Shown here: one piece after another, positions 10,850 to 33,505 of the stretch
Layout: every line of letters begins with the position of its first letter
Position numbering within the stretch: position 1 is the stretch's first letter
Source: Melampsora larici-populina 98AG31
Taxonomy: Eukaryota; Basidiomycota; Pucciniomycetes; Pucciniales; Melampsoraceae
Reading direction: 5' to 3'
Length of the DNA stretch: 64,000 nt
Assembly: GCF_000204055.1 (NCBI RefSeq)
Contig: NW_006768792.1
Span: 336,560 to 400,559, forward strand
Translations under genes and position numbers: made by a program
The notes under the pieces: model-generated
The model's input: the letters and a program-made list of their open reading frames with translations, nothing else
Databases searched by the model: none
Told to the model about the DNA's origin: nothing

Positions 10850-11706
10850 TGTCAGCCTGAGACTCTAAGTCATGGCAGATGACTGGTAGTTCAGAGCTGA
10901 ATAGTACTTACAAAATGTATTCTATCAAGTTTTAGACAATATTATTGAAACTTGAGGGAGATTATTTTTCAATTCTTTGTAAGTAAAAGGAACTATAGTC
11001 GTTACGTATAGTTGTCTTAGGTGCGGGATGATTACCGCTGCCAGTAGCTTATCGAAGTGCAATCACGACGGTAGCCTTCTAAGGTGAATACGAAGGGATT
11101 CGTGGTTATTCCTTAGGTGACGCTTTAGCGTTGGTTTGATGAATTTATCATCAAAAGGAAAATGAGAGACTATCTACAATATCAATTCAAATAGTAAGGA
11201 AACCATCAATTGATAAAGAGATAGTGACTCAGAGAAAAAAAGGTTGTCTTTGATATGAAAGAAGATGCGATAAAGGATTCTAAAAGATAAGAATTCTAAA
11301 TAAGTCTTCTTTCAGATGAAAGATAAACAAAGAAGGATTTTGATGTAAAATGCTAATTCATTGATGAGTTGCGGTAAAAAGTGGTACGGTATAATGTTAA
11401 GATTGTTCTTCTTTGTTTGGATGCACAGAATCCTTGTTTTATATATCAGAGAAAAGTCACTCGCTCTGAGCTAGACTGTCAGGGTTTTCCCTGGATGCTG
11501 TCATCAGGGTTTGATCTTGAAACACGCAACATCAATAGGTTACTTCTTGGAGTCAATCAATACCCTATTTTGGGACTAGGGTCTTGTTGCTTTCACGGTT
11601 GGTAATGACCTGAAATTCATTGCTTGTGTTAACAACTCTGAACCGATGTGTACATAAATGATGGCTGACACATGGGAGTATCACAGAATACTCCTCATGG
11701 CTGACA
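10850..11706. mobile_element. Solo LTR inserted in gypsy integrase, 857 bp
   Basis: Begins TGTCAGCC and ends GGCTGACA, i.e. TG...CA ends inside an 8-bp inverted repeat, and is flanked by identical 5-bp GTGGT (10845-10849 and 11707-11711). Excising it with one GTGGT rejoins the integrase codons TAC CAC CCA CAG in frame. Length, ends and 5-bp duplication fit a solo LTR of another retroelement family. It has no coding capacity, and its orientation is not known. Confidence 0.8.
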
Positions 11707-11711
11707 GTGGT

Positions 11712-12910
11712 AAGCAGTGGTTAGGTTCACCTTGATTTGCAATAATGCATTCAACTCTTTCCAAAAGTTTGAAGTCCACAATTTATCCCGGTCACCAATC
11801 ATTGTCTTTGGTGCACCAAAGATTGCGAGCCAGGCCGCAAAGAGTCGCTGAGCTGTTTTCTCCGCCGTGTCAGTTTGGCATGCTGGGATTGCTCGTACAA
11901 ATCCTGTAAGTCGGCATGTACAGCTGAGAATCATGTCATACCCTCGCACTTTAGGAAATGGTCCAATAAAGTCCAAACAAATATCCTCCATTGGGTTCCT
12001 TGGAACGTCGGTTGACTGCAGATGTCCAGACGGGAGGGTTGTCCTAGCTTTTGTTCGCTGACACACATCGCATGTGCTGACAAATTTTTCGACGTCACGT
12101 GTCATACTTGGCCAAAAGAATTCTGCTCGGAGTTGTCGAATGGTTTTCAGGCTTCCAAAGTGGCCCAGTGCTTTATGTGTCTGCTGTATCAATTGACGTC
12201 TCAGAGGTATATCGGAAGGTATTACTAAACGTCCATCAACATACATGAACCCGTCACGCTTCTCGGATCCCTCTCGCAAAGGCAGTGTCTTCTCTAGCTT
12301 GATGCAGAATTCGTCTGTAGTGTATCCATGTCGGATTTTCTCTAGTGTATCTTCATCCAGATTGCTTTTAATTTCACAAACTGCGACTTCTTCAACACGT
12401 GAGAGTGCGTCGGCAACCGTATTCTCGCCTCCTTTGATGTAATTAAAGTTCAAATCGAATTGCGACAGCGTCTTGAGCCACCTACCTTGCCTGCGGCTAA
12501 TGTTTCTTTGCGATAATAAATGAGTTAAGGAATGATGGTCGGACATAACATTTATCTTCAGACCTAACAGCAATAGTTTCCATTTTTGCAATGCATTAAC
12601 AACGGCCAAGAGTTCTTGTTCATGTACAGGGTAATTCCTTTCTGCAGGCGTCATCGTCCGGCTCTTGTAAGCTATAGGAGATGACATGTCCCATTTTTCT
12701 CCTTGGGATAAAGCCGCGCCTAAACCGTGGCCACTAGCATCCGTGAATAGCCAGATGGGATCTCCTGAATCGTAATCAAGTTTCTTAAGAACTGGTAAGG
12801 TTGTTATAATCCGTTTGATATTTTCAAAAGCCTGATCTTCTTTTTCACTCCAGTTGAATGTTTCCTTTTGCTTTTTTGTACTTGTCAATGGAGAGAGTGT
12901 ACCAACATAG
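11712..12910 (-). pseudogene. gypsy pol fragment 2: RNase H and integrase core
   Basis: Minus-strand open frame that follows the DNA-transposon insertion. It contains RNase H (IWLFTDASGHGLGAALS, SDHHSLTHLL, ADALSR), an integrase HHCC zinc finger (HKALGHFGSLKTIRQL to CDVCQRTKAR) and the catalytic core (DFIGPFPKVRGYD, IFGAPKTMIGDRDKLW, LTTAYH). It is cut on the right by the 17-kb element at target TGTGAC and on the left by the solo LTR at GTGGT. Confidence 0.9.
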
Positions 12911-12916
12911 TGTGAC
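12911..12916. repeat. Target site duplication, left copy (TGTGAC)
   Basis: Matches 30016-30021 exactly. On the minus strand it encodes part of Ser-His in pol, and the same codon phase is kept at both copies, so one copy is the original target. Confidence 0.9.
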
Positions 12917-13200
12917 TACGGAATGCGAGACGTTCCAAAGTGACAATGCGAAATTTCAAAAAACGAAAATCACAATCCCCGGGTGCGAAATTCAAAAATC
13001 AAAGACAAAACTACAGAAAATACTCAAATACAGGGATAAAACCCCTGTACCGGAGTAAAAGTCATGGCAAAAACCCCTTTTTGCCCAATTTTCCAGTGGT
13101 CGACACCGTTTTCATTGCATTGTCACCTTTTGACAAAAAGTACCAGCAACACCAAAAACCAAAAAATCAAAAAACCAAAAATCAAAAAATACATTTCTCA
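12917..13200 (+). repeat. Left terminal inverted repeat of the 17-kb element
   Basis: Reverse-complementary to about 29720-30015. The best block runs from TACGGAATGCGAG to AAAGTCATGGCA-AAACCCC (about 165 bp). A weaker A-rich match continues past CATTGTC and AAAAAGTACCAG. Between 13200 and 13396 no further structure is seen. Confidence 0.85.
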
Positions 13201-13396
13201 AACTTTACAATTGAAACACCAAAGTTAGATTCTACTGCAGTCAAAAACCACATGTTGGCCAACTAGCTACAAGCTCGGTCTCACAGGTATCAACACCTCC
13301 GACCAGAGACATTCTACCATCAGTCTCAAGAGCTTCAAAGTACCTGCTTACTGTCTCGCTCTCCTCCAAAACCTCTTTCATCATCATCAATCCTCT

Positions 13397-13935
13397 TTGA
13401 TTGTCCTTGATCTTCTTATTTCTTTGTCATCCATCCTCGATCTTCCTCAATCTTTGTCATCCGTCCTCAGTCTTCTTATTTCTTTGTCAACCGTCCTTGA
13501 TCCTCCTCAATCTTTGTCACCCGTCCTCGACCTTCTTCTTTCTTCGTCAACCGTCCTTGATCTTCCTCAATCTTCGTCACCCGTCCTCGATCTTCTTCTT
13601 TCTCCGTCAACCGTCCTCAGTCTTCTTATTTCTTCGTCAACCGTCCTCGATCTTCCTCAATCTTCGTCAACCATCCTCGATCTTCCTCAATCTTCGTCAA
13701 CCATCCTCGATCTTCCTCAATCTTCGTCAACCATCCTCGATCTTCTTCTTTCTTTGTCACCCGTCCTCGATCTTCTTCTTTCTTTGTCAACCGTCCTCAT
13801 TCTTCTTCAATCTTCGACAACCGTCCTCAATCTTCTTCAATCTTCGTCAACTGTCCTCAATCTTCTCAGACCATCCTCGATCTTCTTTGATTATCCTGAA
13901 TATTCTTCGACCGTCCTCAATCTTCTGCAATCCTC
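13397..13935 (+). repeat. Left subterminal tandem repeats
   Basis: About 25 short units built on TCCTCGATCTTC, CTCAATCTTCGTCAACC and similar, period about 27 bp. Both forward frames are open through it, which is an effect of the repeat and not coding. The right end of the element has the mirror version (GAAGATTGAAGAAGATTG units at 28926-29490), so these are candidate transposase-binding sites. Confidence 0.7.
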
Positions 13936-13976
13936 ATCCAAACACCTTCAATCTCCATCACCAACTACACACCAAC

Positions 13977-15544
13977 ATGCCAGCGAAAATATCTGATGAA
14001 ATCTTGCGACCGCTTTTGGAAGAAGCTGTGGCTAACAACTGGCCAGCACAAACAGTATGCGACACTGTTTGGCAACGGCACAACATCCGAGTATGTGTAA
14101 GAACTGTTAGAAGACGGATCAAAGAATGGGACTTGAAACAACAAGGAAATTATGATGTGGAGGTTGTAAAGGATGCAGTATTAGATAATTACAAACAATC
14201 TCTGAACCAAAAGCGAGCTCTCATTGCCCTCAAAAACGAACACAACATCATCATCAGCCGGTCAACTTTAGCTCGAGTTGAGAAGCAACTCAATCTTCAC
14301 CGCCAAAAGGATGATCTTGACATGGGTGTAGTAACATATGCCACCGTATGTAGCAAGATTGAAGAACTTCAGATTGAATATGGAAATGTACTTGGAATCA
14401 AGAGTATCAAGAAGATGCTAGCTCAGGAACACGAGCTTCACATCCACCGGCAAGTGTTTGGGCCTTCTTGATTCCATTTGCTCTGATGCTAATTACATTT
14501 GAAATCCTCTTTGATATAGTGATGTTATTGCGGCTATGATGAAGGCAATGGACCCAGATGCTGTCAGAATGAGAGCTGCTCCTAAACTCAAGCGACGGGA
14601 ATACTATGCGGGCGGTCCCAATGAGGTTTGGGCGGCCGATGGACACGACAAGTTGATCAACTTTGGAATCGGTATATATGGATTCATTGATTGCTGGTCT
14701 CGAAAGATTTTGGGACTTCATGCTCATGTCACCAACAGCGACCCCCGCCATGTTGACTTGTGGTATCTGGGCTTTGTCAAGAAACAAGGTGGCATTCCCA
14801 AAAAGCTCACCACGGATCGAGGAACTGAGACTGTTCCTCTTGCTGGACATCAACTTTATTTTGGAGAAACTTACGGTTCCAGAGCTCCAGACTGGCCTTA
14901 TCATCAATATGTCCCGTCCCCTCGTAACCAAAAGATTGAGTGCTTCTGGGACAAAATGACTTGTGGACTGACTGGAAATATCAAAGCTAAAATTCAAGAG
15001 CGCATTGATCAAGATTTATATAATGACAATGATCCAATGTCTAGGTGAAGCTCCTTTTTTCTTAATTGGTGATTCCATGCTGAAATCTTTGTTATTGCTT
15101 TTCAGGACCTTGTTTCTCCACCTATTTATCCCCGTCTTTCAACGAGCTCTGGACAAATGGGTCAGGTTTTACAATGGTTTCTGCAGACGACACGACAAGC
15201 GGTCGAAATTACCTACTGGATGTTCTGCAGACTACTGCTACAAAAACCCCGTTGACGAATTTGGTTGCATTGATTACCTCATACCTGTCCCGGGTGAAGC
15301 GGTGGATGCTATCCTTGCTGATGATTACCCGGAGCAAGAACACTTGTGGAGCACAACCCCTGAGTGGTTTTCCCCGGTGGTTGATCAAGTCATGGAAGAG
15401 GTTGGAATTGTGAGCGGGGATTTGGACATTGGAAATTTTTGGGGTTCTTTTGATGTTGTATTAGCAAGATTGAAAGATTTGTCTTGGAGTAACACTCCCT
15501 TTGCCCGTGTTGAAGGTGATGATTCTATGGTTTTGGAAAACTGA
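13977..15544 (+). CDS. Integrase-like DDE transposase
   Basis: Exons 13977-14449, 14520-15044 and 15106-15544 give 479 codons (478 aa), all in frame. The ATG at 13977 (MPAKISDEIL) is the first Met after the repeat tract. Residues 20-60 look like a helix-turn-helix (CDTVWQRHNIRVCVRTVRRR). The core is of the rve type found in many basidiomycete integrase-core proteins: GGPNEVWAADGHDK with Asp about 198, KLTTDRGTE with Asp about 257 and SPRNQKIECFWDKM with Glu about 298, giving a D-x58-D-x40-E triad that is intact. The first intron requires a GC donor (CG|GCAAGT); with it the sequence reads HIHRDVIAAMMKAMDP without break. It presumably cuts and joins the element ends. It is transcribed from the left end towards the convergent SNF2 gene. 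No stop or frameshift is seen, so it may be active. Confidence 0.85.
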
Positions 15545-15624
15545 GTACTTTATTTTGCTATTACCTGCATCTCTGTGTGTGGTAAACTTTGTAGTGGTCA
15601 ATGGTATTGATTGTTGTGAGCAAA

Positions 15625-15716
15625 GTAATCACACTACGAGATACAATACTCTAAAAGTAATCACACTACGAGATACAATACTCTAAAAGTAATCACACTA
15701 CGAGATACAATACTCT
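15625..15716. repeat. Tandem repeat, 32 bp x 3
   Basis: Three near-identical units starting GTAATCACACTACGAGATAC at 15625, 15657 and 15689, just 3' of the transposase gene in the 288-bp gap before the SNF2 stop. Confidence 0.85.
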
Positions 15717-15832
15717 TGTTTTCGGAAGAAGAAAAAAAAGGACAGAAGAGAATTTTTTCAAGGATAAAAGCCACTTGTGGTCGGTTTGAAACACAAATTC
15801 TACATATATTTTTGGATGGAACCCTCCATCAT

Positions 15833-18488
15833 CTAGACATATTCTGCATAGCATGCATTCACATTGCCTATATCATCCATGACATCCATCGTGTCCCCAG
15901 GTTGGAGGTAATCTTTAAGTTGATCCTTTGGAACTGACAATGTAATTATTTTTCTAGCCAGAGATGCTTTTTTCTTCTGTACCTGAGGGGTATAAAATGT
16001 TTTTGCAGATGATGGTGAGTGTAGCCCTTTCTGGAAGCTGATTACTTGACTCACATTGAATAGGTGCTGTTCAACAGATTGCCCTGCAACCACATGATAC
16101 ACCTTCACGGGGTGAGTCTGCCCTATTCGATGTAGACGGTCAATTGCCTGTTGCACAATCTGTGGATTCCAATGGGCATCCTAATGATATTACTTTTAGC
16201 TAATATTGACCACTGCATACATATGAATGAATGATAACAAACACACCATCAGATAGACCTCGTCAGCGCAGGTCATATTCAAGCCCACACCTCCAGCTTC
16301 AATAGATACTATAAAGGCCTCAATGTTGTTATCGTTCTTGAATCTGTTGAGTTGGCATGTCCTCTCATGAGTTGTCATGTCACCGTGCAAGGTGCCGCTG
16401 CCAATGCCGTGACAATCCAAAGCAATCTTGATCCTGTGGGGTGTGCAGGTTAGCTTACAGGCCAAGTGATATAACAGAGACATAAAATATAATTACCACT
16501 CCATGAAACACCTCCATTGGGTATAGATAACAGTCTTCTTGCATAGACCTTTATGCAAAGTTCTATGCTTCTTTTTGAGCTGGGAAACCAAGTATGCAAG
16601 CTTGCTACTCAGTGACCAGTCCTCCAGGTAGGCTGGCCTGGCATCAGCAGTCAGTGCCCTCCCATCCGGCACCATGATTCCAAGCTCCTCCTCCATCTCC
16701 GTAATCTTGGTCTGATTGAGCTCTTGTTCTTGCTTGAATAAAAGAGGGTGATTGCATGTCATCCTGAGATTCATCAATTGTCTGAAATATTCACCCTGTT
16801 TATGTTGGATTTGAGATTCCACACCAAAATCCTGAAGAAATCTTTCATAATGTTGCTGATATATTGCTTTCACTTTTTGATGCATTTCCAATAAAATGGT
16901 CTCATGGTATATTGGAGGTAAATTTGATAGGTGGCTTGATTTGGTCCGCCTAAGCATGAAGTATCTTAGAAGCTGGCTGAGTGTGTCCAAATTTCCTTGA
17001 TGAACCGGCAGAGTGATTTGACGGTACCATACTGAGTCTTCTTGAAAAGGTTTGATGTGCAGAAATTTGAAGAGCATGTGCAAGTCGCCAATTCTGTTAT
17101 GGAGCGGAGTACCAGTGAGACAGAGCCGGTTGACTGATTCCAAAGAGGTGAGGACTGCATGGGAGGCGGTTTCATTACGAATTACACTGGCACCAGTAAA
17201 GGGTCAGTTTGGTCACAGACCTTTGGTTGCAAAGAGAGAATACTCACTGAGCTTCATCAATGACCACCCTGTACCATCTGGTTGTAAAAGGAACCTGGGT
17301 TGATCCACCAAGCCGTTGGTCATACATAAGTGTTTTTGGGGTTGTAATGACAATGTCGGCTGAGTGGATATCACGTAGAGGTATTTTGAATCTGTCGGTG
17401 CCATGCCAGCGCAAGACTTTCAAGCTGTTTTTTCTAGTGTGTTTTCCAACCTCCTCTTCCCAGTTGTCCATGAGGCTAGTAGGACATATCAAAAGAGTGG
17501 TGTGAGAAGCTCGCAGCTGAGTGTCTAGAGGGTTGACGGCTGATGCTGAATGCTGATGTTCGTATTGTCTTGACGCATCCAGTGTTGTAGCAATTAAAGA
17601 AATAGTTTGAATTGTTTTTCCAAGCCCCATGTCATCAGCTAGAATTGATGCCCTAGGGCTGACTGGTCCGGTTTGTTCCTCAGTGACAATAAATTCTTCT
17701 CCACAGAGACGGTGACACCACCGGTTGAAGGGTGGCATTGATTTATAAAACCAAAGGGAGTGATAAGTTTTGGAATCCGGATTTTCTCTGTCCAACAAAA
17801 ATGCCAGGCCCTGCTTTTGATGGGGGTGCAGCTGAGAAGTAACTATATCTGAAGGTTCAACAGGCTGAAGATCTGAACCGCAAGAAATGGACGCGAGTCT
17901 TGAGGCCTCTTGGCTGGTCAAAATATGATCAGGAAAAGCAGAACTCCAGTTGGGGGTTGTACGTGCTTCTAGATCCACCAGAGGAATATGTTGATGTTGG
18001 TGAGGTTGGTAATGAGTAGGACGCTGGAGTTTGATCTGGAAAGTCTTGACAATCTTCACAAGGGTTGCTTGATACCAATTTGGTATAAATATAAGTACTT
18101 TGACTTGCAATTGAGTGGCATCAAGTCCATGACATTCTACAATAGTTGTGTTGACAGTAGAGCTGATGAGAACTGGGTGACTTGGTTCCAAATAAGTATT
18201 AGACTTCCATCCACCGGCAGGTTCAGATTTATATGTACGCGGAGTACTTCCAAGCAGCTTCAATAGACAACTATCAACTCCTGCAGGGACATACCCCAAT
18301 GAATGACCACTTGGGAGATATAAAGTGATTTCCGGTGTTCCACGGCCATCATCACAGACTTTCAAGAACACAGGTGACTGATGTGGATGTTGCAATTTGG
18401 CCGCTGTGGAAGTGGGTGATGCCACCAGGAAAGATATCATCCCAGCACATACTGGTTGGCTTGGATTTTGTTGAGGTGTGAGCGGCAT
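15833..18488 (-). CDS. SNF2-family ATPase, Rad5/Rad16-like
   Basis: Minus-strand exons 18488-17248, 17186-16497, 16433-16247 and 16180-15833 give 822 codons (821 aa), all junctions in frame. Start ATG at 18488 (MPLTPQQNPS). Motifs: DMGLGKTIQT (Walker A, about 286-295), LLICPTSLMDNWEEE (Ia), VVIDEAH formed across the first intron (about 408-414), LCLTGTPLHN (III), FMLRRTKSSHL, LHGDMTTHER (helicase C), AGGVGLNMTCADEVYLM, DAHWNPQIVQQAIDRLHRIG (motif VI with the arginine finger). The layout is that of the Rad5/Rad16/HLTF branch, but I see no RING finger between the lobes. ATP-driven remodelling of nucleosomes or protein-DNA complexes is the family role; help with target access or resistance to silencing is inference. 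It diverges from the acidic-protein gene across the palindrome array. Confidence 0.88.
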
Positions 18489-18840
18489 GATTGACCAAAA
18501 AAGACGGAGTGGCAAAAAAAAAAATTGATTGAGGGACAATATACTTTGGGTGCTTGAGGCACGCTTTATATGAGCTCACATTTGCTGTGCGGATTTTCAC
18601 AATTTACATAACATTTGTGGATCTCGCAGATCCACGCACAAGCTCCTGAGATTGATGCAAATCTCAGGTCGCATGTTTCAAAAAATGTTTATCAAGTTCT
18701 CGTAACGTTATCTACTGTATATCCTGTTTGGTCATATGAAGATGATTCCTGATTCATCTTTTGGTATTGATTTGTTACACCGTGGAAATGATCAATTTTG
18801 GGGCGAGTAACCAAATCACCAAAGGCATCCTTTGGTTTGA
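18489..18840. promoter_or_regulatory. Upstream region of the SNF2 gene
   Basis: Short 5' region of the minus-strand SNF2 gene. No distinct motif beyond an inverted GATCTGCGAGATCCAC-like stretch near 18617. Confidence 0.35.
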
Positions 18841-19188
18841 GCTTTATATATTTATTTTTATTATATATAAATTATATTTTGATTATATTTTGATTATAAT
18901 CAAAATATATATTTATGATATATTTATTATATCATAATAAAATATGCAATATATATATTTATATATATAAATATATAATGAAAATATAATAAAACAATAT
19001 TTTTATTATATATATAAATATATAATGAAAACATGATAAAAAAATAAATTTTATAAATTTATATATATAAATATATAATGAAAATATGATAAAAAAATAT
19101 TTTTATTATAATATATAAATTTTATTATATGAATATATAATGAAAATATAATAAAAAAAAAATTATTATATATTTATTACATATGACA
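18841..19188. repeat. Extreme AT-rich block
   Basis: About 350 bp composed almost only of A and T, in ATATATAAATATATAATGAAAA-like near-repeats (similar phrases near 18970, 19010, 19065 and 19130). It directly abuts the palindrome array and would melt easily. Confidence 0.85.
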
Positions 19189-20410
19189 CACCGCACGACC
19201 ACTCAGTAATTGTGCGGTGGAGAAGCCCGGGGCCTAGATAATCTAGGCCCCGGTTCCTATGGCACGATCACCCAGTGATCGTGCGGTGGAAACCGGGGCC
19301 TGGACTCATCTAGGCCCCGGCCTGATCCACCGCACGATCACTCAGTGATCGTGCGGTGAGAGGTCAGACCACCTATCAGCTAGGTGGTCCACCTATCGAC
19401 AGGTAGACCACCTAGCGATAAGGTGGTCTACCTAGGTTGTCCCACCGCACGATCACCGAGTGATCGTGCGGTGGTGATGGCTAGGCCGGGGCCTAGGACA
19501 CTCTAGGCCCCGACAGCTACCGCACGATCACTCAGTGATCGTGCAGTAAGCGATTAGGCCACCTAACAGGGTTAGGTGGCCTATTTGTTTGAATAGGCCA
19601 CCTAGCCTGCCGCTAGGTGGTCCCACCGGCCTAGAACACTCTAGGCCCCGGTAACTACCGCACGATCACATGGGCCTAGAACACTCTAGGCCCCGGTAAC
19701 TACCGCACGATCACCGAGTGATCGTGCGGTGGTGAAGGCACCACCAGGGCCTAGGACACCCTAGGCCCCGGTAACTACCGCACGATCACTCGGTGATTGT
19801 GCGGTAGGTGGCCAGGCCACCTAGGTAGACCACCTACCTGCTAGGTGGTCTACCTATGGAAAGGTAGACCACCTAGCGGTTAGGTGGTCTACCTAATACC
19901 GCTAGGTGGTCTACCTAATACCGCTAGGTGGTCCCACCGCACGATCACCGAGTGATCGTGCGGTGGTTAAGGCCTCACCGGGGCCTAGGACACTTCTAGG
20001 CCCCGGTACCTACCGCACGATCACTCGGTGATCGTGCGGTAGGTGGCCAGGCCACCTAGGTAGACCACCTACCTGCTAGGTGGTCTACCTATGGAAAGGT
20101 AGACCACCTAGCGGTTAGGTGGTCTACCTAACCGCGGTGTGCAACCCACTGCACAATCACTGAGTGATCGTGCGGTAGGTTGCGCCGGGGCCTAGATTGT
20201 TCTAGGCCCCGGTACCTACCGCACATTCACTCAGTGATCGTGCGGTAGGTGGCCAGGCCATCTAAGCGCTAGGTGACCTAGCGCTTAGGTGGCCGCGTCA
20301 TCGCACAATCACCGAGTGATCGTGCGATGGCTAGGTCACTTAACCGCTAGGTGACCTAGCCACCTAGCGGTTAAGGGGTTGATCGAATCGATCAATCGAT
20401 TCGATCAACC
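19189..20410. repeat. Array of interleaved palindromes (about 12 main copies)
   Basis: Class A: about twelve near-perfect 29-31-bp palindromes, half-site ACCGCACGATCACT joined to its mirror, starting near 19189, 19262, 19328, 19443, 19519, 19701, 19777, 19936, 20012, 20149, 20218 and 20300, plus an isolated half-site near 19657. Class B: CCGGGGCCTAG...CTAGGCCCCGG hairpins between them. Class C: nested TAGGTGGTCTACCTA and TAGGTAGACCACCTA hairpins. The array ends with a GATCGAATCGATCAATCG palindrome near 20385. It is GC-rich in an otherwise AT-rich element and non-coding. Sits between divergent genes. Confidence 0.9.
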
Positions 20411-21243
20411 CCATCTTCCAACACCACCTTCCACTCTCCAACTCCACCATCACACCGATCGAAAGCCGTTCGATCGATCGTGACCTTTTTGGAACCCGTC
20501 GATAAGGACACAGTTAACCAGCTATTAGAGGTAGATGGTTTCATCTACCTCAAAGACTCAAATCATCAATAGAACAAATTCAAAAACACTTTCACTAACA
20601 ATATGATTCTTTTTTCTCTCCTTTTCTTTTTTTTTTCTCTATTTCACATCATCAAAAAAGTTTAGGTTACAATCAATATCAGGTCTTCATCATATTATAA
20701 TACCATCAAAACAAGATAAACAAATCCACATCATTTGAATCAATAAACAAAATCAAGTCATTTGAATCATCAATTTAATTTTTTACATTTACAAACTCAT
20801 CAGAACAATATAAACAAAATCAAGTCTTTTGATTCTTCAAATTTGTTTGATTTGTTTAATATTTTATATCTATAACCTCATCAAAACAATTTAAACAAAT
20901 TCAAAACTTTTGAAACATCAAATTAGTGTCATTTTTTAACTGTTATAAACTCATCATAACCAGATAAACAAAAAAAAACTTTGACTCATCAAATTAGTGT
21001 TTTTTTTACTGTTATAAACTCATAGAAGGGAGATAAACAAAATCAAATTACTTGAATCATCAATTTGTTAATTTTGTTAACTCAAATTTTTAACTTTATT
21101 TTGGATTTTTTTAGTTTGTTATATTCATTTCTTTGGAATAATCAAATAAAATTGATAACCTAGTTTCAAAAAAATTATCAAGTCAGTATTCAAACACCTG
21201 AGCTACAATCATTTCAAATAAACTGATACATACCTCAATAGAT
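20411..21243. other. Long AT-rich leader before the acidic-protein gene
   Basis: Between the palindrome array and the ATG at 21244. It contains loose ~65-80-bp repeats of ATAAACAAAATCAAG / TTTGAATCATCAA near 20720, 20810, 20890, 20960 and 21030. No coding frame. Probably promoter and leader. Confidence 0.5.
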
Positions 21244-24066
21244 ATGCCATATGAGAACCGTCCATCACCTCCTCACATGAATTTCAGTGAGGAGAAAAGT
21301 CAGGCCTCTTCTGTAGACTCAGATTCGGACCAGGACAAACTCGAGATGAAGAATAACCCCGCCTCACAGCCGAAATTTCCTGCTCCGAGTTTCCAAACTT
21401 TCTCTCAAGCACCGTCAGTTCCAGGTCCTCTTGATGCGGTTCAACAAGTTGGTTTATCCGATCACGAAGTCCAGGAAATCTCAAAGGAAGAATATTACCG
21501 GAATGTGAACTCGACTTCGGCCATCCTCAAGGAACAGCTTAAAGTTGCTGGTCTTCCTCCTCGAGTTTATGATTTGATTGAACAAGCTGGAAAGGAATGT
21601 GATAACGCTTTTGAAGGTTGCTATTGTTCATTTACTTCTTTCTTTTTGGGTGCTTTCTGACCCCTTTTCTTTTGCAGACTTAGAGCGAGGAAAACGTCCA
21701 CCAACTCGACCCAATGTGAAGGTCATCTGGATTCAAGATGACTCCCCGCCTCCGCCCAACCGAAGGCGTTCTGAACGTACCCGCGAAGCCGCTCCCAGCT
21801 ACTCCGGCACTCAGATGCGCTCGAAACGGACCCGTTTGAATCTTAGCTCAAAACCCAAAGACCCAATCAATGAACATGATTCGAATGAGGATGCCGAAGG
21901 AGACAATGATTCGAATTCTGGTGGCCATGAGGACAAGGAAGAAGAAAAATCAAATGATGAAGTTGTTCAACACGAATCTCAAAATGAAAAAGAACCAGCA
22001 GAACATCAAGATCAAGACAAACTTTCAACCTCAGATGAACTAGATCTTCCCCCGGTCAACTTATCTCAAAATTCTCTACGGAAAGGAGTCATTCGATCAA
22101 CCTCTTCAGACTTAGATGGAGAACCAATCTCCTCAGCACTATCGTCTCCACCACCCGTCCCGGAACCTTCTCCTGGCCCATCTTCCGAACTTGAGGATGA
22201 GGAAGATGGGTTAGGGAAAATCAGGGAGCCCCGAAGCTCACCGGCTCCTGAACAATCTCCGGCCCACGAAAAATCTCAGGTTCCCGAACAGCCTCCGGCT
22301 CCCGAACGCTCTCCGGCTCCCAAACAGCCTCCGGCTCCCGAACGCACTCCGCCTCTGATCTGCCTTCGAGATTGCCTGCAGATGTTAATATATTACCTGC
22401 AGAAGTTCTCGGCGACCCCCATCCGGTCACTACGGAGGCATCCGAACGTAATACCAGCGACGTGGGACCTGGTTCGAACCGTAATTACTCAGCTCATCAA
22501 GAACCAAATGGGTCAGTGTGGAACCAATTACTCAGCTCATCAAGAACCAAATGGGTCAGTTTGTATTTTACGTTTGGCCAGGTCATAACCAGGGTAAGAA
22601 CTCTGTGAAAACACTATTTTAACTTTTCCTCTCTTTTTGACCATTCTCGTCTCTCATAGAAACAAATGTCCAAGTCACACCATGTGAAGACGAAATGGAT
22701 CTAGACATTCCAGTCTTTGACACAACTGAAGTGGCAACTATTCCAGCCAACTTACCTCCCGCAATCTCGGAGACGGATTTTATCCTGAAGCATCAAGAAG
22801 TTTTCTGTCAAAGTTTCACCGAATTTCCGGCCAAAAAGATGTCTTCAGCTACCTTTGCCAAAGGTAGAGACAGTGCTTTCAACTTGATCGCCATGAGGCT
22901 TGAACATATTCCTCTCTTGGAAAAGCCATCTTTCCAATTACCTCCGGGAACGTGTTTTTCAGGCAGCAAGATGTCTAATTCAGCATGGCTTGAATTTGTT
23001 AATGAGCAAGGTTAGTGCATATGATTTATTGAATTTTGGTAAAGTAAATCAACTGACATACCCTTATGTCACAGGACTTCAATTCTTCACACCTGCTGAA
23101 GGTGAATTGCTGTTTAGCTCCGAATTATGGAGCCCTTCTTTGTTTCAAGATTCTTTCAATCCGGACCTGGATACAAAGTTATGGCCTTTTCACGTATGGT
23201 GGACTGTGCGGCCTATTGTATGTCCTTCCAAAAAGAAACGTCAAGAGGTTTCTAATTTATTTCAAGATGCTATTGCGGTGGCTGGGGATCAAGTCATTCA
23301 CAAGAATACCTTTGAAGAAAACCCGGATGCTACTCCTTATGAAAATAGTTATAGATTTGTTTCTCATTTATTATTAACTCGTCCAACCTTAGGCTCCAGC
23401 GGTGGCGGAGAAAATCTACTTACTTCAGGCTCGTCAGGATCTCAATTAATTGCACACGAATCAGCAGTGGTCAAAGCCGGTACATTGAATAATCTTCAAA
23501 ACTTTTCAGTCAGTGTTCACGATGTATTAATGGGGCTAGCTGTAATGGATTTACATTCAAAAATTCCTGAAAAAGCAACTGATACGGAGCAAAAACAAAT
23601 CAAAAAAGATATCAATAAGAAGATTGACGAATTGAAGGAGGTTGGGTTTGCATGGGGTTCCTTGGCCGGTTTCATAACTAGTGGTGTTAGAGGATTAATG
23701 TTGGCTTCAAGAGATAAGCATGTGCCAGTGGGCAATGCTATGGCAATCATCAAGGCTGCGGAAGAAATTCAAAAGTTGGAGAAGATTTGGTGCCGGACTC
23801 ATGATTATATTATGGGACTTTTGGTCAAAGGGTATTTCCCTCACAAGCGGTCAGTTCATCCAGGGAAATCAGTGTTTGGTGAAGTCAAGGTTCAAAAGAT
23901 TCAGCTGGCCATATGCCTGGCCTACGACATTGGATACTATTGGTCGGTGCAGGTACCAGGTATGACTTGTGCTATTCTTCCTAAAGCTTATATCCCTTTG
24001 GTGAAGATCAACAACACCAAGCTGACAGTTGAAGGGGAAGAGGAAGATGCAATGGATATTGAGTAA
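21244..24066 (+). CDS. Acidic protein of unknown function, element cargo
   Basis: ATG at 21244 (MPYENRPSPP). Exons 21244-21616, 21678 to about 22590, 22660-23010 and 23075-24066. The N-terminal half is disordered: acidic (NEDAEGDNDSNSGGHEDKEEE), then Pro-rich units (PAPERSPAPKQPPAPER). The C-terminal half, about 440 residues, looks folded: FFTPAEGELLFSSELWSPSL, FHVWWTVRPIVCPSKKKR, GFAWGSLAGFITSGVRGLML and KVQKIQLAICLAYDIGYYW; the end is acidic (EGEEEDAMDIE). Near 22340 the coding signal moves to another frame, and a 35-bp direct repeat follows (about 22482 and 22527), so exon 2 either has an unseen small intron or a frameshift. No family is recognised. Its place in the element beside nuclear enzymes suggests a structural or DNA-binding partner, but that is guesswork. 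Confidence 0.65.
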
Positions 24067-24947
24067 ATGTTTTGTATCTTCTATGTTTTGTTTTCTTCTT
24101 TTCTCACCAAAATACTCTTATGTAAGCAATGTCAACTATCATTGGTTCTTGAGTAATAAAACTTTCCGTGGTACAACCTTGTGTGAACCATATGATGACA
24201 TGTGAGATATGTAAACATACCAACTGTAACATGTAAGGCTACATGTGTATACATGATGTAATGGCTGACCACAACTCAGCCACCATTTGAGTGGAAGCAT
24301 TTAACCAGTCCTTTGTTCCCAGTTTCTTCCGATCTTATTATTATTTAATTCTGTTCTGTCCGCTTCCTTCAATTTGTTGAATCAACCAAGGTAATCCATG
24401 TTCTTCCTTTGTCTTCCCGTCTGTTCTTTACTTCACTGAGATGAAGACAGATCATATAAGAAGATATATTATATCCTCAAGAAGAAATGGAAACTTGAAG
24501 AATCCACAAGAAGCCGAATCTAATTGAATGTAGATGAATAAATCAATCAACATTTCTCAAACATCTGTTCAATTCATCGCAAAAGAAGACTCATATAATT
24601 CAAAACATTTACCTCTCATGATTTACTCACGAACAATTATTGAAGACGGTGGCACTTGAGATACATGCAGAGATGTTTATGTCTCGTGAAGGGCAGGGCA
24701 AGTGACTGAGGGGTACCCCAACTACCAGCCTAACCCTTTGCTAAATGTATCTCAGTGCTTCCGCATTTCATTCCTCAAGAATTTACTCAATACTTATTCA
24801 TTCAATTATTCATTCATAAGATCTCACATTGAATCATTTCATACAACCAAAATTTTATTCACTTATTTCTTTGCATCCCCACACACATTCCAAAATATTC
24901 ACGTGTTGAACATACCATTAATCAAAGCTATGTTTTTTTCCCTGTAG
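24067..24947. other. Intergenic region before the Tet-like gene
   Basis: Holds the 3' end of the acidic-protein gene and the upstream region of the oxygenase gene. TTTTTTTCCCTGTAG directly before the ATG at 24948 looks like an intron acceptor, so a non-coding or short coding 5' exon may lie here; I could not locate it. Confidence 0.45.
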
Positions 24948-26581
24948 ATGCCCAAACCAGTATCTGAACTTCGAAAGCAAAAGATGGTCGAGTACCAAAA
25001 GCGGAAGAAGGCTCAACAACACAATGCCCAACGGGATCCGGTCCGGGATGTTGGAAGAGAACATGTCAGTCAAAGAATCAAAGCAGGAATCAAAGACCGG
25101 TTTGGCTTGCCAGAGGACTGTGATGTATTCCGAGTTCCTCAATTTGGGAACAGGAAAGAGCGAGTAGTGACCTATGGGACTGTGGTACTTGTGAATCTGG
25201 CTGGAAATAAGCTTATATGTGTTGCTAGGTTCAACAAAGAGGTCAAGTCCCTTGAACTTTCTGTTGTTTCCACATGGCTGACATTTCTTGCTGCAGGACC
25301 CCGCCAGCATTGACCCTGCCCAAGTGCAACTTTGGAAAGACTTTCGAAGGGCTATCAAGATCATGCATCAACACTCTGAAGCACGGGGTGTAATCAAGGA
25401 AAATCATGCAGTCAAGATGCTACCGCCCCACGAGCGGCAAGGTACTATGAAAGCATTTGGTCACAGATCATCTAAGCGTGCTGGACAATATCAAAGAGGA
25501 ACAGTTATTGGTTTGTTTATCTTCACCTTTCCACAGGAGGACATTTCAGAAAGTTAATTTGTTCAATGTCTTAACACCAGCAACCTATGCCCAAAATTCA
25601 TCTACCAGCGAGGACCCAGCCAAACTAGACGAGGACGAAGCCCGCCAAGATGAACTTCCTTGGGTAGTGGACTTTCATGCTGAAAGGACATGTTCATTAT
25701 CTCTATTTGTGTATGATTCCAACAAGAAGCTGGCCGAAGACACTGATGCCCCGTCGTGGGGATCAAAAGAGCCGGTGCCTGGTAGCAAAGAGTGGGAGAA
25801 ATCACCCAATGCCCAAGTCTTTGGGGACAAGGCATTTGTGGGATCCAATGTGATTGCTACCACTGGAGGATTCCGCAACGGAGTTCATTGTGACTTTGAT
25901 GCCACCGGATTTGCTTCGGGTTTCTTCTGCTTAATTGATGCGAACACATGTTGAGTATTTAATATTCACAGTCTTATGACCAATCTGCTGACATATGTAA
26001 TCTATTACAGCTGAAATTATTACTCCGGCAAGAAGACTCGAACTTTTGGCCGAGAGGAAGGAAGAAATTGAACTAGAGAAGAAGACTGGACACCGCATTG
26101 ATAAGAAGCATCCCCAAGTTGGTGCCAAGTTTGTAATTCACATCAGTAACTATTTCAAGTTTATTGTAGACATCAATGCAGCTGATGTGGTAGAATTACT
26201 GTGGGCAACAGATGTTTGCCACAACACCGAACATTTTTTATTTTCTGAAGGAGAAAAAAAAAGACAACATACTTGCAGGGTGCTGTAACAAGGGAAAAAA
26301 CCAAGGCAAGAAAAGGGATTGGAAAGAGTAAAGGGGCAGTAGACCATGTACTTGCTTATGCTTGTAGCACTCAGATCAGTACCACTGTGGTGGCAGCAAT
26401 GAAGGAGATTATGGAACAGCGGGTTGGTTTGGATGATGAGAGCTGGGAAAAATTGCACAGCGGCCTTGCAGAGACCTACGATAAGCAGATGCAACGGAAA
26501 CGGGCCAATTTGGACCATCTTCAGAATAAGATTACTTCTTATAAGGAAACAAAAGGTTCAGCACTCAGATTTTTAAAATGA
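24948..26581 (+). CDS. Tet-like 2OG-Fe(II) oxygenase
   Basis: Proposed exons 24948-25241, 25297-25503, 25550-25949, 26011-26213 and 26279-26581 (469 codons, 468 aa). It resembles the Tet-like 2OG-Fe(II) oxygenases expanded in rusts: GTVVLVNLAGNKLICVARF near the start, an HxD iron motif in GGFRNGVHCDFDATGF, a hydrophobic strand GFFCLID, then FKFIVDINAADVVELLWATD and, near the end, HVLAYACSTQIS where the family has a TRFG-S-Q-like strand. Such enzymes use iron and 2-oxoglutarate; TET/JBP relatives oxidise methylated or thymine bases in DNA, so DNA is the likely but unproven substrate. The second intron is weakly supported (GTTATT donor). The last intron, if real, removes a VCHNT segment that looks like the distal iron His; see findings. 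Convergent with the kinase gene, 141 bp apart. Confidence 0.75.
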
Positions 26582-26722
26582 TATATACATGTTTTTTTTT
26601 TGTTTTTAAGATGATAATTTTGTGAGCAAAGGGATTTTGTAAATTTTTGATTTTTTTAAGAGCAACAAATTTTGGAATACAGATTGAAAGGAAAGAATTT
26701 ACTCCTGAATTTCGGCCTTGTG

Positions 26723-28886
26723 CTAATCTCTTGCTGGAATATGAGTCTGTTCCCCAGACTTACCTCCATACAACAGCTCCATCTCCTCCCGTAGACTTAA
26801 TTTTGCTACCTTTGGCGGTAGCAACCCCAGGTGCTTGCATATCTTGTTGCATTCGTGCTGGGTAGAGAAGTTCTCCAAGCCTTTCCTTCCAGTATTTCCC
26901 TCGCACCAAGCCATACTGGGGCCAAAACAAACCGTCAGGCAAAATGTTGGAATGCAAGCACAAAAGTACTTACTTGCTCGTATCCACAATCAAAGGGTCT
27001 GTCAAAACCAAACCTACCCCCTGAAGATCCGCAACCATTCTTCTTCCGCCATAGTGTTTATGAGACCAATGACTGAGAGCTTGCATTACTTCATTGACTA
27101 AAGGACTGTCTGAAGGCCGGAGTTCAAAGTTGTGATTGCTGGTATACTTGCGGTATTGTGTAACATCAAGTACTTCTTCAAAGAAATAAGCACATTCTGT
27201 CGTAGCACTGCTTCCTGCATAGACCGGAAAGTTTTGAACCATCTGGAAAATAAAAACATGTCATCGAGAAAGCTTGAATAAAATGAGATCCATATATTTG
27301 ACTCACACGAATGTTTTGGATAGCTTCAACCGTTGCAGGGAAAAGTTGAATTTCATTCAGTCCCAAAGCGGCTTTCTTAAACTTTTCAATCACCATGGAA
27401 ACAGCAGCATACACTCCACCGGATTCTTTATGGACAGCCAGATGAGTCATATTGGGAGGCAGCTCCCTCCGCTTCTTGGCAACCATCGGAGTCACCTCAC
27501 CACCAGGTGTTCTTCCAAAGGCATTGTAACATGTCTTGAAAGAACCTTTTCCAATCACCACACTTTCATCAACTTTGAAATGATACGGTGTTACCACCCA
27601 TTCAGGTTTACCTTCTGCATTTCCTGTCAAAATGCATTTTTTCCCAACGGTGAAACCGTCTGTAGTCTCAGCAGGTGGAACAGGGCAAGCCATGGGAAGC
27701 TTTCGACCAAATACGGAGATATCAATAGCCTCTCTGAAATCAAAGGCCGGTACTAAGGAGGGCATGTCAGCCAGACCAAAAATGAGTAGTGAACAAGAGC
27801 GGTGAGCTTACCTGTCTGGTGAGGTGGTATCACATGAGTCATAGCTACAGGAGCCACATCACTCTGAGCACGGTGGGGAGATTTTCGTGGGGTGATGGGT
27901 GGCGGGAGTGTGTATGTACTATTCTTGGTTTTAAAATTAGAAGCCTTCTTTCGAGTGACTCGTGGTGAGGTGACTTTTGTTGAAGTTGAAGGTGTACACC
28001 TGGCTTTCTTGCTTGGCTGGAATATTTCGACACTCAAAGGCAGATCACCATCACTATCACTATCACTATCACCATAATCCGCTTCTTCATCTCCATCATC
28101 TAATAACATCTCCTCATAAGTCAAATGTTGAGATGCCTTTCTTTTAGCTTGTCGTTGAGGTTGTACCGGCTTACTGGTGGAAGGTCGAAGCCAAGGATTA
28201 TTTTTGACATATTTGTCAGCCAGAAAAATTAGCTCGAGGCTAGGTTCTCCTTTAGTGTCATCAAGATATCTGGCAAAAACTTCATTGTTATGTAAGACCA
28301 CAGGTGATTTCCGGCCACGGCCGGTTTTGGCCAGGTTGAAATACTCAGAGTTGTAAACTTTGGGTGCCTGGGGGTAAAGAGGAGAGTCAACCGAGTGGTC
28401 CCACAGGTTGAAGATGCCTTCCTTGGTGTCGTCCAAGAGTGTCAACGATGACCTATCCACAGTGAAAGTTCCCCGAAGTAGACCATGAGCGAAAGAGCCG
28501 GTGTCGTATATCACCATCCATCCTACAGAGCATACTCGGCCAGTGTGAGTAGTGAAAGGTGGAGGTTTAGGTGCTGCTGGGTGACCATTAAACATGCGGT
28601 TGCTGCTAGCTTGTTTCTTGGCAGCAGCTCGCTTTGACTTGTCGCTTTGAAGTTGGTGAACATGAGTACCAGTGGAAGTCGAGGTACGGGCTGCAACAGC
28701 TGCTTTGGCATTGATGACCTTGAGATTGGCAGGGCGGGGTTGAGAAGCTTGGGTGGGTGCCTGCTGGGGGGGAGAAGGAACCTTTTTGTTTCGGTCCGCA
28801 TTGATGTTTTCAAGGCAGGGTCCACATATTTTGTGTTCGCCTTGACGGAGAGTACTTTGACATAAGGGACAAGTAGGTCGGTTCAT
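26723..28886 (-). CDS. Alpha-type protein kinase with zinc ribbon
   Basis: Minus-strand exons 28886-27812, 27752-27307, 27242-26974 and 26915-26723 give 661 codons (660 aa), junctions in frame. ATG at 28886 (MNRPTCPLCQ). Residues 6-24 hold C6-x2-C9 and C21-x2-C24, a small zinc ribbon. The middle (about 120-350) is basic and Ser/Thr-rich with an acidic patch, perhaps a DNA- or protein-binding linker. From about 420 comes an atypical alpha-kinase: ESVVIGKGSFKTCYNAF (nucleotide loop), MVAKKRREL (Lys), RRMVADLQGVGLVLTDP (DxQG, about 579-582) and ENFSTQHECNKICKHLGL, the zinc-binding H-x-C-x3-C that marks this fold. Such kinases phosphorylate Ser/Thr in helical substrates (eEF2K, MHCK). A strong GTAAGT near 26750 allows an alternative last exon. 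Its role in the element is not known. Confidence 0.82.
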
Positions 28887-28925
28887 GATAGTGAAATATG
28901 AGTATCTGAGAGAAACCAAAGTCGA

Positions 28926-29490
28926 AGAAGAAGCTGATTGAAGAAGATTGAGGTCGATCAAAGAAGATTGAAGTCGATCGGAGAAGATTGAAGTCGATCG
29001 AAGAACATTGAAGAAGATTGAAACTGATTCAAGAAGATTGAAACCGAATCAAGAAGATTGAAGAATATTGAAGAGGATTCAAGAAGATTGAAGAAGATTG
29101 AAGAAGATTGAAACCGATTCAAGAAGATTGAAGAAGATTGAAGAAGATTGAAGAAGATTGAAACCGATTCAAGAATATTGAAGAAGATTGAAGAAGATCG
29201 AAGAGAATTGAAGAATACTAGGGAACAATGAAGCCGATACAAGAATATTGAAGAAGGGTGAAGCCGATCCAAGAATATCAAAGAAGATTGAAGACAATCA
29301 AAGAAGGATGAAGAAGAGTGGAGACGATCAAAGAGGTTCAGTGTAGTGTAGAAGAGTGAAGACGATCAAATAAGGATGAAGAAGAGTGGAGACGATCAAA
29401 GAGGTTCAGTGTAGTGTAGAAGAGTGAAGACGATCAAATAAGGATGAAGAAGAGTGGAGACAATCAAAGAGGTTCAGTGTAGTGTAGGTT
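28926..29490 (-). repeat. Right subterminal tandem repeats
   Basis: Units of GAAGATTGAAGAAGATTG with GAAACCGATTCAAG variants to about 29290, then two to three longer ~55-bp units around GAAGAAGAGTGGAGACGATC. Read in reverse complement it resembles the left subterminal array (CAATCTTC core), giving the element mirror-image ends. Confidence 0.7.
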
Positions 29491-29719
29491 TGGTTGAACA
29501 AGTGGATGGGTGGAGACTATAACAAAAGTTGGAGGAATGACTAAGATGATCGGTGATGGTGTGTGGGTTGTGTGATTGGTTGAGAGGTAGAGGTAGAGAG
29601 GTACACTTTTCATCATCTAATGTGAAGTTTTCATTTTTGGGGTCTTTGTTTATGGTTTGTTAATTGTCGTTTTTTGATTATCGACATTTGTTTTTTGATT
29701 TTCGACTTTTGATTTTTTG

Positions 29720-30015
29720 ATTTTTTGATTTTTGAATTTTGATGTCCTCTTTTGTGGTTTCCTGGTACTTTTTGTGTCAATGCGACAATGGGGTGACAAA
29801 TGTTGAGTTTCAAGTTGTAAATCTACTGAAATTTGGGCCGTAACCTGGTCTGAAAGGGGTTTCTGCCATGACTTTTACTCCGGTACAGGGGTTTTTGCCC
29901 TGTATTTGAGTATTTTCTGTAGTTTTGTCTTTGATTTTTGAATTTCGCACCCGGGAATTGTGATTTTTGTTTTTTGATTTTTGCATTGTCACCTTGACAC
30001 CTCTCGCATTCCGTA
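29720..30015 (-). repeat. Right terminal inverted repeat of the 17-kb element
   Basis: Ends CTCGCATTCCGTA at 30015; inverted partner of 12917-13200. Between 29490 and 29720 there is only low-complexity T-rich sequence (TTTTTGATTTTTGA). Confidence 0.85.
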
Positions 30016-30021
30016 TGTGAC
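30016..30021. repeat. Target site duplication, right copy (TGTGAC)
   Basis: Identical to 12911-12916 and in the same pol codon phase. Confidence 0.9.
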
Positions 30022-33000: not shown

Positions 33001-33329
33001 GTCATTGGCGGTGGTGTCAAAACGAAAAGTCCGGGAGGATGAGGTGTAGACTGAGCCAGTGCGGCTTCAAAGTAGTCTTTGACGATTGTGCGGTCTGCAG
33101 TTAAGGTAGGATCTTGATAATCTTGATCTGACGGTCCAGTCGAGGCTTTTGAAGTCGAAGCTGTCAAAGTATACGGTATGATATTCGTCTCGTCACTTGC
33201 TTCTGGTTTATAATTAAACCTAGGAGGTGGTGGTGCTGGAGGTGTCTCTGTCGCTGCTGGCTGTTGTCGAAGGCGTCTAAAAAGGCTCTCTAGGTCGGAA
33301 ATGAAGTTGGCAGGCAAGTCAAATCCCAT
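30022..33329 (-). pseudogene. gypsy gag-pol fragment 1: gag, protease, RT
   Basis: Minus-strand open frame. ATG at 33329 (MGFDLPANFI). The N-terminal third is disordered, then a gag-like capsid region (EAPKFTGLIEDPAAFFNWKR, MKPNEDFKTYAGRARDLF). A retroviral-type aspartic protease shows as VRALIDSAAETNLMS (Asp-Ser-Ala rather than the common Asp-Ser/Thr-Gly). Reverse transcriptase motifs: WVCDYRTLNKYTVKD, MPMGLTNGPATHQSR and CVVYIDDVVVFSDS (YxDD box intact), HEISADGVCPDD. There is no frameshift between gag and pol. The frame is cut at 30021 by the DNA element, inside the RT thumb/connection region (FLKKFVDGLS). Confidence 0.92.
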
Positions 33330-33505
33330 ACGTGAATGGGGTGTCGTGGTGTCAAAGGTTTCGCAGTTGTCACGTCGCACAGTCAAGATGGTGTCAAGAA
33401 GGAAAAAAAGAAAAGGAACAAGATAGAAAAATTGAGTTTGAATTTTGACAGGTGGTTGTTCGAGAGGTGGTTATAGTTGATCAACAAAGTTTTTGATTAA
33501 AAAAG
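33330..33505 (-). other. gypsy leader and primer-binding region
   Basis: Between the 5' LTR and the gag start. The first bases after the LTR on the minus strand are CTTTTTTAATCAAAAACTTT; I could not assign a tRNA primer match. Confidence 0.45.

What the first reader, a model, noticed from the sequence alone, without database searches (positions are those of the whole stretch)
12917..30015. A 17.1-kb cut-and-paste element carrying five multi-exon genes and no polymerase
Ends are fixed to the base: TACGGAATGCGAG inverted repeats, a 6-bp TGTGAC duplication, and exact restoration of a retrotransposon reading frame on excision. Inside are an intact DDE transposase, SNF2 ATPase, Tet-like oxygenase, alpha-kinase with zinc ribbon and an unknown acidic protein. 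Size and 6-bp duplication match Polintons and the presence of TET plus SNF2 recalls KDZ elements, but the gene set fits neither. It may be a distinct superfamily of large fungal transposons.
Basis: partly seen in the sequence, partly recalled or inferred. Interest (0 to 1): 0.93.

Follow-up and report, generated by a model that had tools for sequence, protein, structure and literature searches.

The report
Five-gene IS3EU transposon in rust fungus
This is a real, multi-copy 17-kb jumping gene of a known family (IS3EU) in a rust-like fungus; beyond the published gene set of its relatives it carries a chromatin-remodelling enzyme and a protein of unknown kind, and all five of its genes show signs of being kept by selection.

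Summary
The element is real and its ends are right to the base (12917-30015). The inverted repeats are about 163 bp, not 13. The 13-bp terminus occurs 121 times in the genome; 23 of 27 end pairs tested have an exact 6-bp duplication, among them all eight pairs 16.7-35 kb apart. It is not a new superfamily: 6-bp duplications, TACGG..CCGTA ends, an integrase-like (PF24764) transposase and a TET gene between transposase and an opposed alpha-kinase are the published description of TET+ IS3EU transposons of rusts (PMC12730594). That paper's main text does not mention SNF2. Here SNF2 and a fifth gene are fixed parts of one sublineage: seven loci, in two families 37-69% identical in protein, hold all five genes in one order and orientation, and each gene shows dN/dS well under 1. 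Between the closest copies, CpG cytosines (TCG most) change 10-12 times as often as others, so methylation-type mutation acts on the element. A 1.1-kb array of 22 GC-rich hairpins separates the divergent SNF2 and fifth genes; its main hairpin was found at 19 places, all in or near this family. Verdict: new variant of a known kind.

The parts
12911..12916 (.). 6-bp target site duplication TGTGAC, left copy
30016..30021 (.). 6-bp target site duplication TGTGAC, right copy
12917..13079 (+). left terminal inverted repeat (about 163 bp; weaker similarity to the right one goes on to about 314)
29853..30015 (-). right terminal inverted repeat
13403..13866 (.). subterminal 30-bp tandem repeat, 15.5 copies
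13977..15544 (+). transposase, 480 aa; exons 13977-14455, 14520-15044, 15106-15544; D200, D259, E300 (D58D40E); PF24764
15833..18488 (-). SNF2-family ATPase, 797 aa; exons 18488-17248, 17186-16497, 16433-16247, 16180-16055, 15982-15833; PF00176 and PF00271
19227..20288 (.). array of 22 perfect GC-rich hairpins (arms 8-17 bp, loops 1-7) in the divergent region between SNF2 and the fifth gene
21244..24066 (+). fifth gene, protein of unknown kind with an acidic stretch (by eye); conserved last exon in the frame 22897-24066; exon 2-3 joints not settled
24948..26578 (+). TET/JBP-like 2OG-Fe(II) dioxygenase (PF20515); exons 24948-25241, 25297-25510, 25581-25949, 26011 onward; frame of the last part uncertain at a poly-A run near 26255
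26723..28886 (-). alpha-kinase, 660 aa (PF02816), with N-terminal CxxC..CxxC motif; exons 28886-27812, 27752-27307, 27242-26974, 26915-26723
28936..29487 (.). subterminal tandem repeats at the right end (units of 20-68 bp)
11695..12915 (-). interrupted Ty3/Gypsy-type ORF, RNase H/integrase side
30016..33470 (-). interrupted Ty3/Gypsy-type ORF, protease/RT side

Best explanation
A TET+ IS3EU cut-and-paste transposon of a rust-like fungus (Pucciniales), of a sublineage that added an SNF2 ATPase gene and a gene of unknown kind to the published transposase-TET-alpha-kinase set. Shown here: many copies with the same ends and exact 6-bp duplications; the five genes inherited together in fixed order (transposase +, SNF2 -, fifth +, TET +, kinase -); purifying selection on all five; CpG/TCG-type change among the copies. 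Inferred: the DDE transposase binds the 163-bp inverted repeats, excises the element and joins it to a target with a 6-bp stagger. The TET enzyme oxidises 5-methylcytosine on the element and so slows methylation silencing and methylation-driven mutation. The SNF2 ATPase gives TET, transposase or the transcription machinery access to silenced chromatin. Kinase and fifth protein act in regulation, unknown how. The hairpin array is a cis element of the divergent SNF2/fifth-gene region.
For: Ends and duplications; they fit the published TAYGG..CCRTA, repeats over 30 bp, 6-bp TSD (PMC12730594). Transposase: PF24764 55.5 bits (cut-off 26) against 18.9 for rve, and no Integrase_H2C2 match; Puccinia PF24764 proteins are its named relatives, 29-44% identical over 50-99% of the query; RNase H order of elements, closest solved folds retroviral integrases and TnsB, with modest TM-scores of about 0.4-0.5. 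Linkage: 7 loci with all five genes, same order and orientation each time, in families A and B that form one transposase clade (100/98) and are 37-69% identical in protein. Selection: upper end of the 95% bootstrap interval of dN/dS under 1 in 16 of 18 comparisons, at least twice for each gene. CpG C<>T change 60/751 vs 41/5331 at other C (C12) and 46/729 vs 29/5343 (C86); TCG 40/239 and 27/223 vs 17/501 and 17/502 at other CpG.
Against: The paper's supplement was not readable, so SNF2 may be listed there. No activity, expression or methylation data. The division of labour among accessory proteins is inference. The CpG excess was not compared with host genes, and CpG observed/expected is 0.62 in the element and 0.67 in the rest of the window, hardly different. 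TET of copy C71 has broken frames and dN/dS 0.70, so not every copy keeps it. Four of 27 end pairs have no duplication.
Confidence: 0.88

Rival explanations
1. A distinct, undescribed superfamily of large fungal transposons.
For: SNF2 is not mentioned in the main text of the IS3EU paper, nor did I see the fifth gene or a hairpin array in the parts that I read.
Against: 6-bp TSD, TAYGG..CCRTA ends and TET between transposase and opposed alpha-kinase are as published for IS3EU in rusts; the transposase groups with rust PF24764 proteins.
Confidence: 0.05
2. An IS3EU element in which SNF2 and the fifth gene are cargo captured by chance, without a role in transposition or survival of the element.
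For: 57 clusters are a transposase match alone, and the TET-kinase-only loci lack both genes; many copies have lost genes.
Against: Both genes are kept in order and orientation in two diverged families (stretches 36-80% identical for SNF2, 19-51% for the fifth gene), and dN/dS is 0.27-0.37 and 0.17-0.35.
Confidence: 0.2
3. A Polinton/Maverick-type element.
For: Size and 6-bp duplication (Polinton features recalled).
Against: No DNA polymerase B, protease or capsid Pfam match in the scanned pieces of the element.
Confidence: 0.01
4. A KDZ (Dileera/Zisupton) element, another TET carrier of rusts.
For: TET gene; Dileera carry TET in rusts (PMC12730594).
Against: Zisupton and the Dileera family cited there make 8-bp duplications; here exactly 6 bp in the 23 duplicated pairs; PF24764 and no KDZ-type match.
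Confidence: 0.01
5. Assembly artefact at this locus.
For: Runs of N near the hairpin array in four other copies (gap or withheld) suggest that the region is hard to assemble.
Against: The window copy has no N; seven other pairs 16.7-35 kb apart lie at other loci with their own, different 6-bp duplications (one of them, C4, is mostly N).
Confidence: 0.01

Closest known systems
TET+ IS3EU transposons of Pucciniales (Kojima 2025, PMC12730594; seen: abstract, passages, part 1 of the discussion, figure legends)
   Same: 6-bp TSD, TAYGG..CCRTA, TIR over 30 bp, TET between transposase and alpha-kinase, those two opposed; three published families also have TET in the transposase's orientation
   Different: SNF2 ATPase (0 mentions in the main text) and a fifth protein added; hairpin array
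Other IS3EU-like loci in the same genome (C32:390875, C3:3212464, C7:304175)
   Same: transposase 42-45% identical, with TET and a distant alpha-kinase
   Different: TET opposite to the transposase; no SNF2 or fifth-gene match in the cluster; ends of the C7 copy not found
IS3EU/GingerRoot superfamily (PMC10045372; seen: passages)
   Same: TA..TA ends, usually 6-bp TSD, no HHCC motif before the core
   Different: no accessory genes described in the passages that I saw
KDZ transposons (through PMC12730594)
   Same: TET gene in rusts
   Different: 8-bp TSD, other transposase
Trypanosome JBP2 (recalled, no call): one protein with TET/JBP and SWI2/SNF2 domains
   Same: pairing of a TET/JBP dioxygenase with an SNF2 motor
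   Different: two separate genes here, on a transposon

Membership tests
IS3EU (TET+) | 6-bp target site duplication | tested here: met
   23 of 27 pairs exact 6 bp, never longer; 4 pairs without
IS3EU (TET+) | ends TAYGG..CCRTA, TIR over 30 bp | tested here: met
   TACGG..CCGTA, about 163 bp
IS3EU (TET+) | TET between transposase and alpha-kinase, these two opposed | tested here: met
   7 of 7 five-gene loci
IS3EU (TET+) | integrase-like DDE transposase without HHCC domain | tested here: met
   PF24764; no Integrase_H2C2 at E <= 0.1
IS3EU (TET+) | transposase inside the IS3EU/GingerRoot clade | not testable with these tools
   no Repbase sequences at hand; only compared with Puccinia and metagenome PF24764 proteins
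Polinton/Maverick | protein-primed DNA polymerase B and capsid/protease genes (recalled) | tested here: not met
   no such Pfam match in the scanned pieces
KDZ | 8-bp TSD and KDZ transposase | tested here: not met
   6-bp TSD; PF24764
Ginger1 / LTR-element integrases | H2C2/HHCC domain before the core | tested here: not met
   absent in the transposase, present in the gypsy ORF of the window

The most novel reading that the evidence does not exclude
An IS3EU lineage that carries its own chromatin-opening kit: a TET dioxygenase and an SNF2 motor kept together under selection, with a fold-back hairpin array as a cis element between divergent promoters, that counteracts methylation and silencing of itself. 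The same cargo would explain part of the enrichment of SNF2 and alpha-kinase domains reported for wheat rusts (PMC5295586, Table 3: 2.56 and 2.34 fold).
Probability: 0.35. Interest if true: 0.75.

Novelty: new variant of a known kind. Interest (0 to 1): 0.55.

Why it matters
It shows a transposon that keeps, under purifying selection, two enzymes that could act in series on silenced chromatin (SNF2 motor and TET dioxygenase), in a host whose CpG/TCG mutation signature is visible on the element itself. That makes the anti-silencing hypothesis for transposon-borne TET testable: copies with intact, broken and missing TET or SNF2 coexist in one genome and can be compared for methylation and CpG decay. 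It also warns that SNF2 and alpha-kinase enrichments read as host adaptation in rust genomes may partly be transposon genes.

Tried and rejected
New superfamily, Polinton, KDZ, Ginger1 and assembly artefact: rejected as above. A three-gene IS3EU-like copy in the same genome (C7:304-309k) was fetched with 17.4 kb around it, but no TAYGG ends with a duplication were found, so I cannot say that it is a complete element. Structure of the fifth protein: mean pLDDT 38 from five sequences, not used. Fifth protein against Pfam: only a sub-threshold match (LCIB_C_CA, E 0.056), rejected. Rfam: 17 matches at E <= 1, none at gathering score; 16 of the 17 lie in the hairpin array, 15 of these to miRNA precursors, and only reflect hairpins. 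Pairing of variable hairpin arms is partly circular because only perfect hairpins were collected; I do not count it as proof. Whether the genome has a host SNF2 gene orthologous to the Puccinia proteins could not be tested (the search with P0005 did not complete). dN/dS of the window against C12 and C86 is uninformative (too close). The species was not identified; the best-scoring named relatives are Puccinia graminis (transposase 38%; SNF2 32%) and Melampsora americana (fifth protein 27%), so it is rust-like but no close annotated copy was found in that database.

TSD pairs were 27 plus/minus neighbours chosen by eye from the 100 listed of 121 end sites. The four pairs without a duplication are C18:1317075, C28:607838, C47:133352 and C28:1002181-1063117 (61 kb apart, probably not one element).
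Full report
1. The observation. The sequence shows TACGGAATGCGAG at 12917 and its reverse complement ending at 30015, between two copies of TGTGAC. The inverted repeats go on for about 163 bp (about 93% by my count), with weaker similarity to about 314 (76% over all). The 13-mer occurs 121 times in the genome (98.3 Mb, 243 contigs; window = C28:336560-400559) and never in the reversed control (100 of the 121 places were listed). I paired 27 neighbouring opposite ends and compared flanks: 23 have an exact 6-bp duplication and none a longer one. All eight pairs 16.7-35 kb apart have it (window, C12, C86, C75, C19, C4, C71, C13), each with its own 6-mer; so do 15 of 18 pairs 1.7-11 kb apart, so shortened derivatives have moved too; a pair 61 kb apart has not. 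The insertion lies in a Ty3/Gypsy-type ORF, and 15 other places in the genome match the joined flanks across the junction.

2. The genes. Splice models with GT-AG introns of 55-72 bp give a 480-aa transposase, a 797-aa SNF2 protein and a 660-aa alpha-kinase without internal stops. Pfam: transposase PF24764 E 7.8e-15; SNF2 PF00176 E 1.2e-62 plus PF00271; TET-like PF20515 E 9e-13; alpha-kinase PF02816 E 8.5e-34. Transposase: D200, D259, E300; the model of the catalytic exon (mean pLDDT 79) has the RNase H order, and its best solved matches are retroviral integrases and TnsB, TM about 0.4-0.5. SNF2: closest solved sequence Rad5. In a tree of 59 SNF2 proteins the six element copies, one metagenome protein and five Puccinia proteins form one group (SH-aLRT 97, quick method, long branches), and the P. 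graminis protein shares the region before the ATPase. Whether those Puccinia genes lie in transposons was not testable. Fifth protein: three proteins at E <= 0.001 in the large database, the only named one from Melampsora americana, 27%; no usable fold. TET: the frame of the last part differs among copies at a poly-A run.

3. Is the five-gene set fixed? From I grouped match rows lying within 9 kb of the next (245 of 382 rows typed). Seven loci hold all five genes: window, C12, C86, C19, C75 (family A) and C34, C32 (family B). Order and orientation are the same in all seven: transposase +, SNF2 -, fifth +, TET +, kinase -. Eleven more clusters hold three or four neighbouring ones (8 fifth-TET-kinase, 2 with SNF2 added, 1 SNF2-fifth-TET). 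The B loci match the window at 65-67% (transposase), 37-47% (SNF2), 43-51% (fifth), 60-69% (TET) and 47% (kinase). By stretch, window against C34: transposase 52-66%, SNF2 36-80%, fifth 19-50%, TET 39-77%, kinase 31-62%. The A and B transposases form one clade (100/98) whose nearest rows are two unnamed environmental proteins (the C7 row lies outside but has a long branch). Three other loci have transposase at 42-45% with an opposed TET and a kinase at 27-35%, five more a transposase at 37-50% with an opposed TET, and none of these eight clusters holds an SNF2 or fifth-gene match. So SNF2 and the fifth gene are old, fixed members of one sublineage.

4. Selection. Window against C75, C19 and C71: dN/dS 0.31-0.32 transposase; 0.27-0.37 SNF2; 0.17-0.35 for the fifth gene's last exon and 0.22-0.31 for the exon before it; 0.28, 0.18 and 0.70 TET (C71, the last, has broken frames); 0.23-0.35 kinase. 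The 95% bootstrap interval ends below 1 in 16 of 18 comparisons; the exceptions are kinase C19 (1.09) and the fifth gene's exon 3 in C75 (1.91), and TET C71 only just passes (0.99). Many copies carry stops or frameshifts, as expected of a family with dead copies.

5. Methylation-type mutation. Between the window and its two closest long copies, C<>T change at CpG is 60 of 751 sites (C12) and 46 of 729 (C86), against 41 of 5331 and 29 of 5343 at other cytosines: 10.4 and 11.6 fold. For C75, C19 and C71 the ratio is 4.7-5.4. Within CpG, TCG changes 4.9 and 3.6 times as often as other CpG in C12 and C86. PMC12730594 cites TCG hypermutation for Pucciniomycotina. CpG observed/expected is 0.62 in the window copy and 0.33 in decayed C32; but it is 0.67 in the rest of the window, so the element is not much poorer in CpG than its surroundings. 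No host-gene control was run and changes were not polarised. The element is thus under the kind of attack that a TET enzyme is thought to relieve; that it relieves it is not shown.

6. The hairpin array (new, not in the finding). Between the divergent SNF2 and fifth genes, 19227-20288 holds 22 perfect hairpins with arms of 8-17 bp and loops of 1-7, of three recurring types; shuffles of 1.1 kb gave a mean of 0.1 and at most 1 in 50. A second count over 1.1 kb gave 21 against a mean of 0.21 and a maximum of 3 in 100 dinucleotide-model sequences. The CCGCACGATCAC..GTGATCGTGCGG type occurs at 19 places in the genome, none in the control: 12 inside tested end pairs (window 5, C12, C15, C18 two, C42, C75 two; the C18 pair has no duplication) and 7 within 1-9 kb of other ends or gene matches of this family (C10, C42, C43, C105 four). 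C75 has 13 hairpins of all types in the same interval, and family B (C34) has six of another sequence at the same place; the C101 piece has none but ends with its contig. In C12, C86, C19 and C71 runs of N (gap or withheld) lie at or beside this interval. Candidates for its role: control of the divergent promoters, a fold-back RNA, or a DNA-level signal; I cannot choose.

7. What it is. Published TET+ IS3EU elements of seven rust species make 6-bp duplications, have repeats over 30 bp, end TAYGG..CCRTA, and all hold TET between transposase and alpha-kinase, these two opposed; in three families TET lies in the transposase's direction (PMC12730594). Each of these features is met here. The main text of that paper has no mention of SNF2 and one of helicase, about Helitrons. 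Searches of the held library for TET, JBP, SNF2, transposon and alpha-kinase, for rust fungi, SNF2 and TET, for KDZ names with SNF2 or alpha-kinase and for alpha-kinase, transposon, Basidiomycota and rust listed no paper that by title or abstract describes the five-gene set; the supplement of PMC12730594 was not readable. Hence: a new variant of a known kind.

8. How it most likely works. Shown: past mobility, gene linkage, selection, CpG change. Inferred from the families: cut and paste by the DDE transposase with a 6-bp stagger; TET oxidation of 5mC; SNF2-driven access to silenced DNA. The pairing of TET/JBP and SNF2 functions has a precedent in trypanosome JBP2 (recalled, no call). PMC5295586 (passages) lists SNF2 N-terminal and alpha-kinase domains as 2.56 and 2.34 fold enriched in wheat rusts and reads the enrichments as adaptation by gene duplication; transposon cargo is an alternative worth testing.

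Noticed in passing
window 19227-20288; L021 (C75), L030-L031 (C34): Dense array of GC-rich hairpins between divergent SNF2 and fifth genes, found only in or near this transposon family; family B has hairpins of another sequence there; runs of N lie at or beside it in four copies.
   Followed up: partly
G000:C86:46500-74000 (L036, L019, L020): A family A copy (53413-70111, with 6-bp duplication) appears to sit inside a family B copy: B transposase at 48989, a fifth-gene match up to 53410, then B TET at 71567 and kinase at 73071 on the other side.
   Followed up: no
window 13403-13866 and 28936-29487: Subterminal tandem repeats of 30 bp (left) and 20-68 bp (right) just inside the inverted repeats; possible transposase-binding or leader repeats.
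   Followed up: no
G000:C45:349726-351588, C50:167972-169694, C90:164378-166258: Short 1.7-1.9 kb elements with the same first 13 bases, a different continuation (GAGGTG) and exact 6-bp duplications: MITE-like derivatives.
   Followed up: partly
G000:C28:607838-616431, C34:806789-814571, C46, C41, C68, C100 and others: A shortened subfamily of about 6-10 kb with decayed gene remnants (TET pieces at 74-79% identity).
   Followed up: no
window versus C75, C19, C71: Mosaic divergence: SNF2 at 74-80% protein identity while transposase, TET and kinase are at 93-98%, suggesting exchange between copies.
   Followed up: no
PMC5295586 Table 3: SNF2 and alpha-kinase domain enrichment in wheat rusts may partly be transposon cargo.
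   Followed up: no
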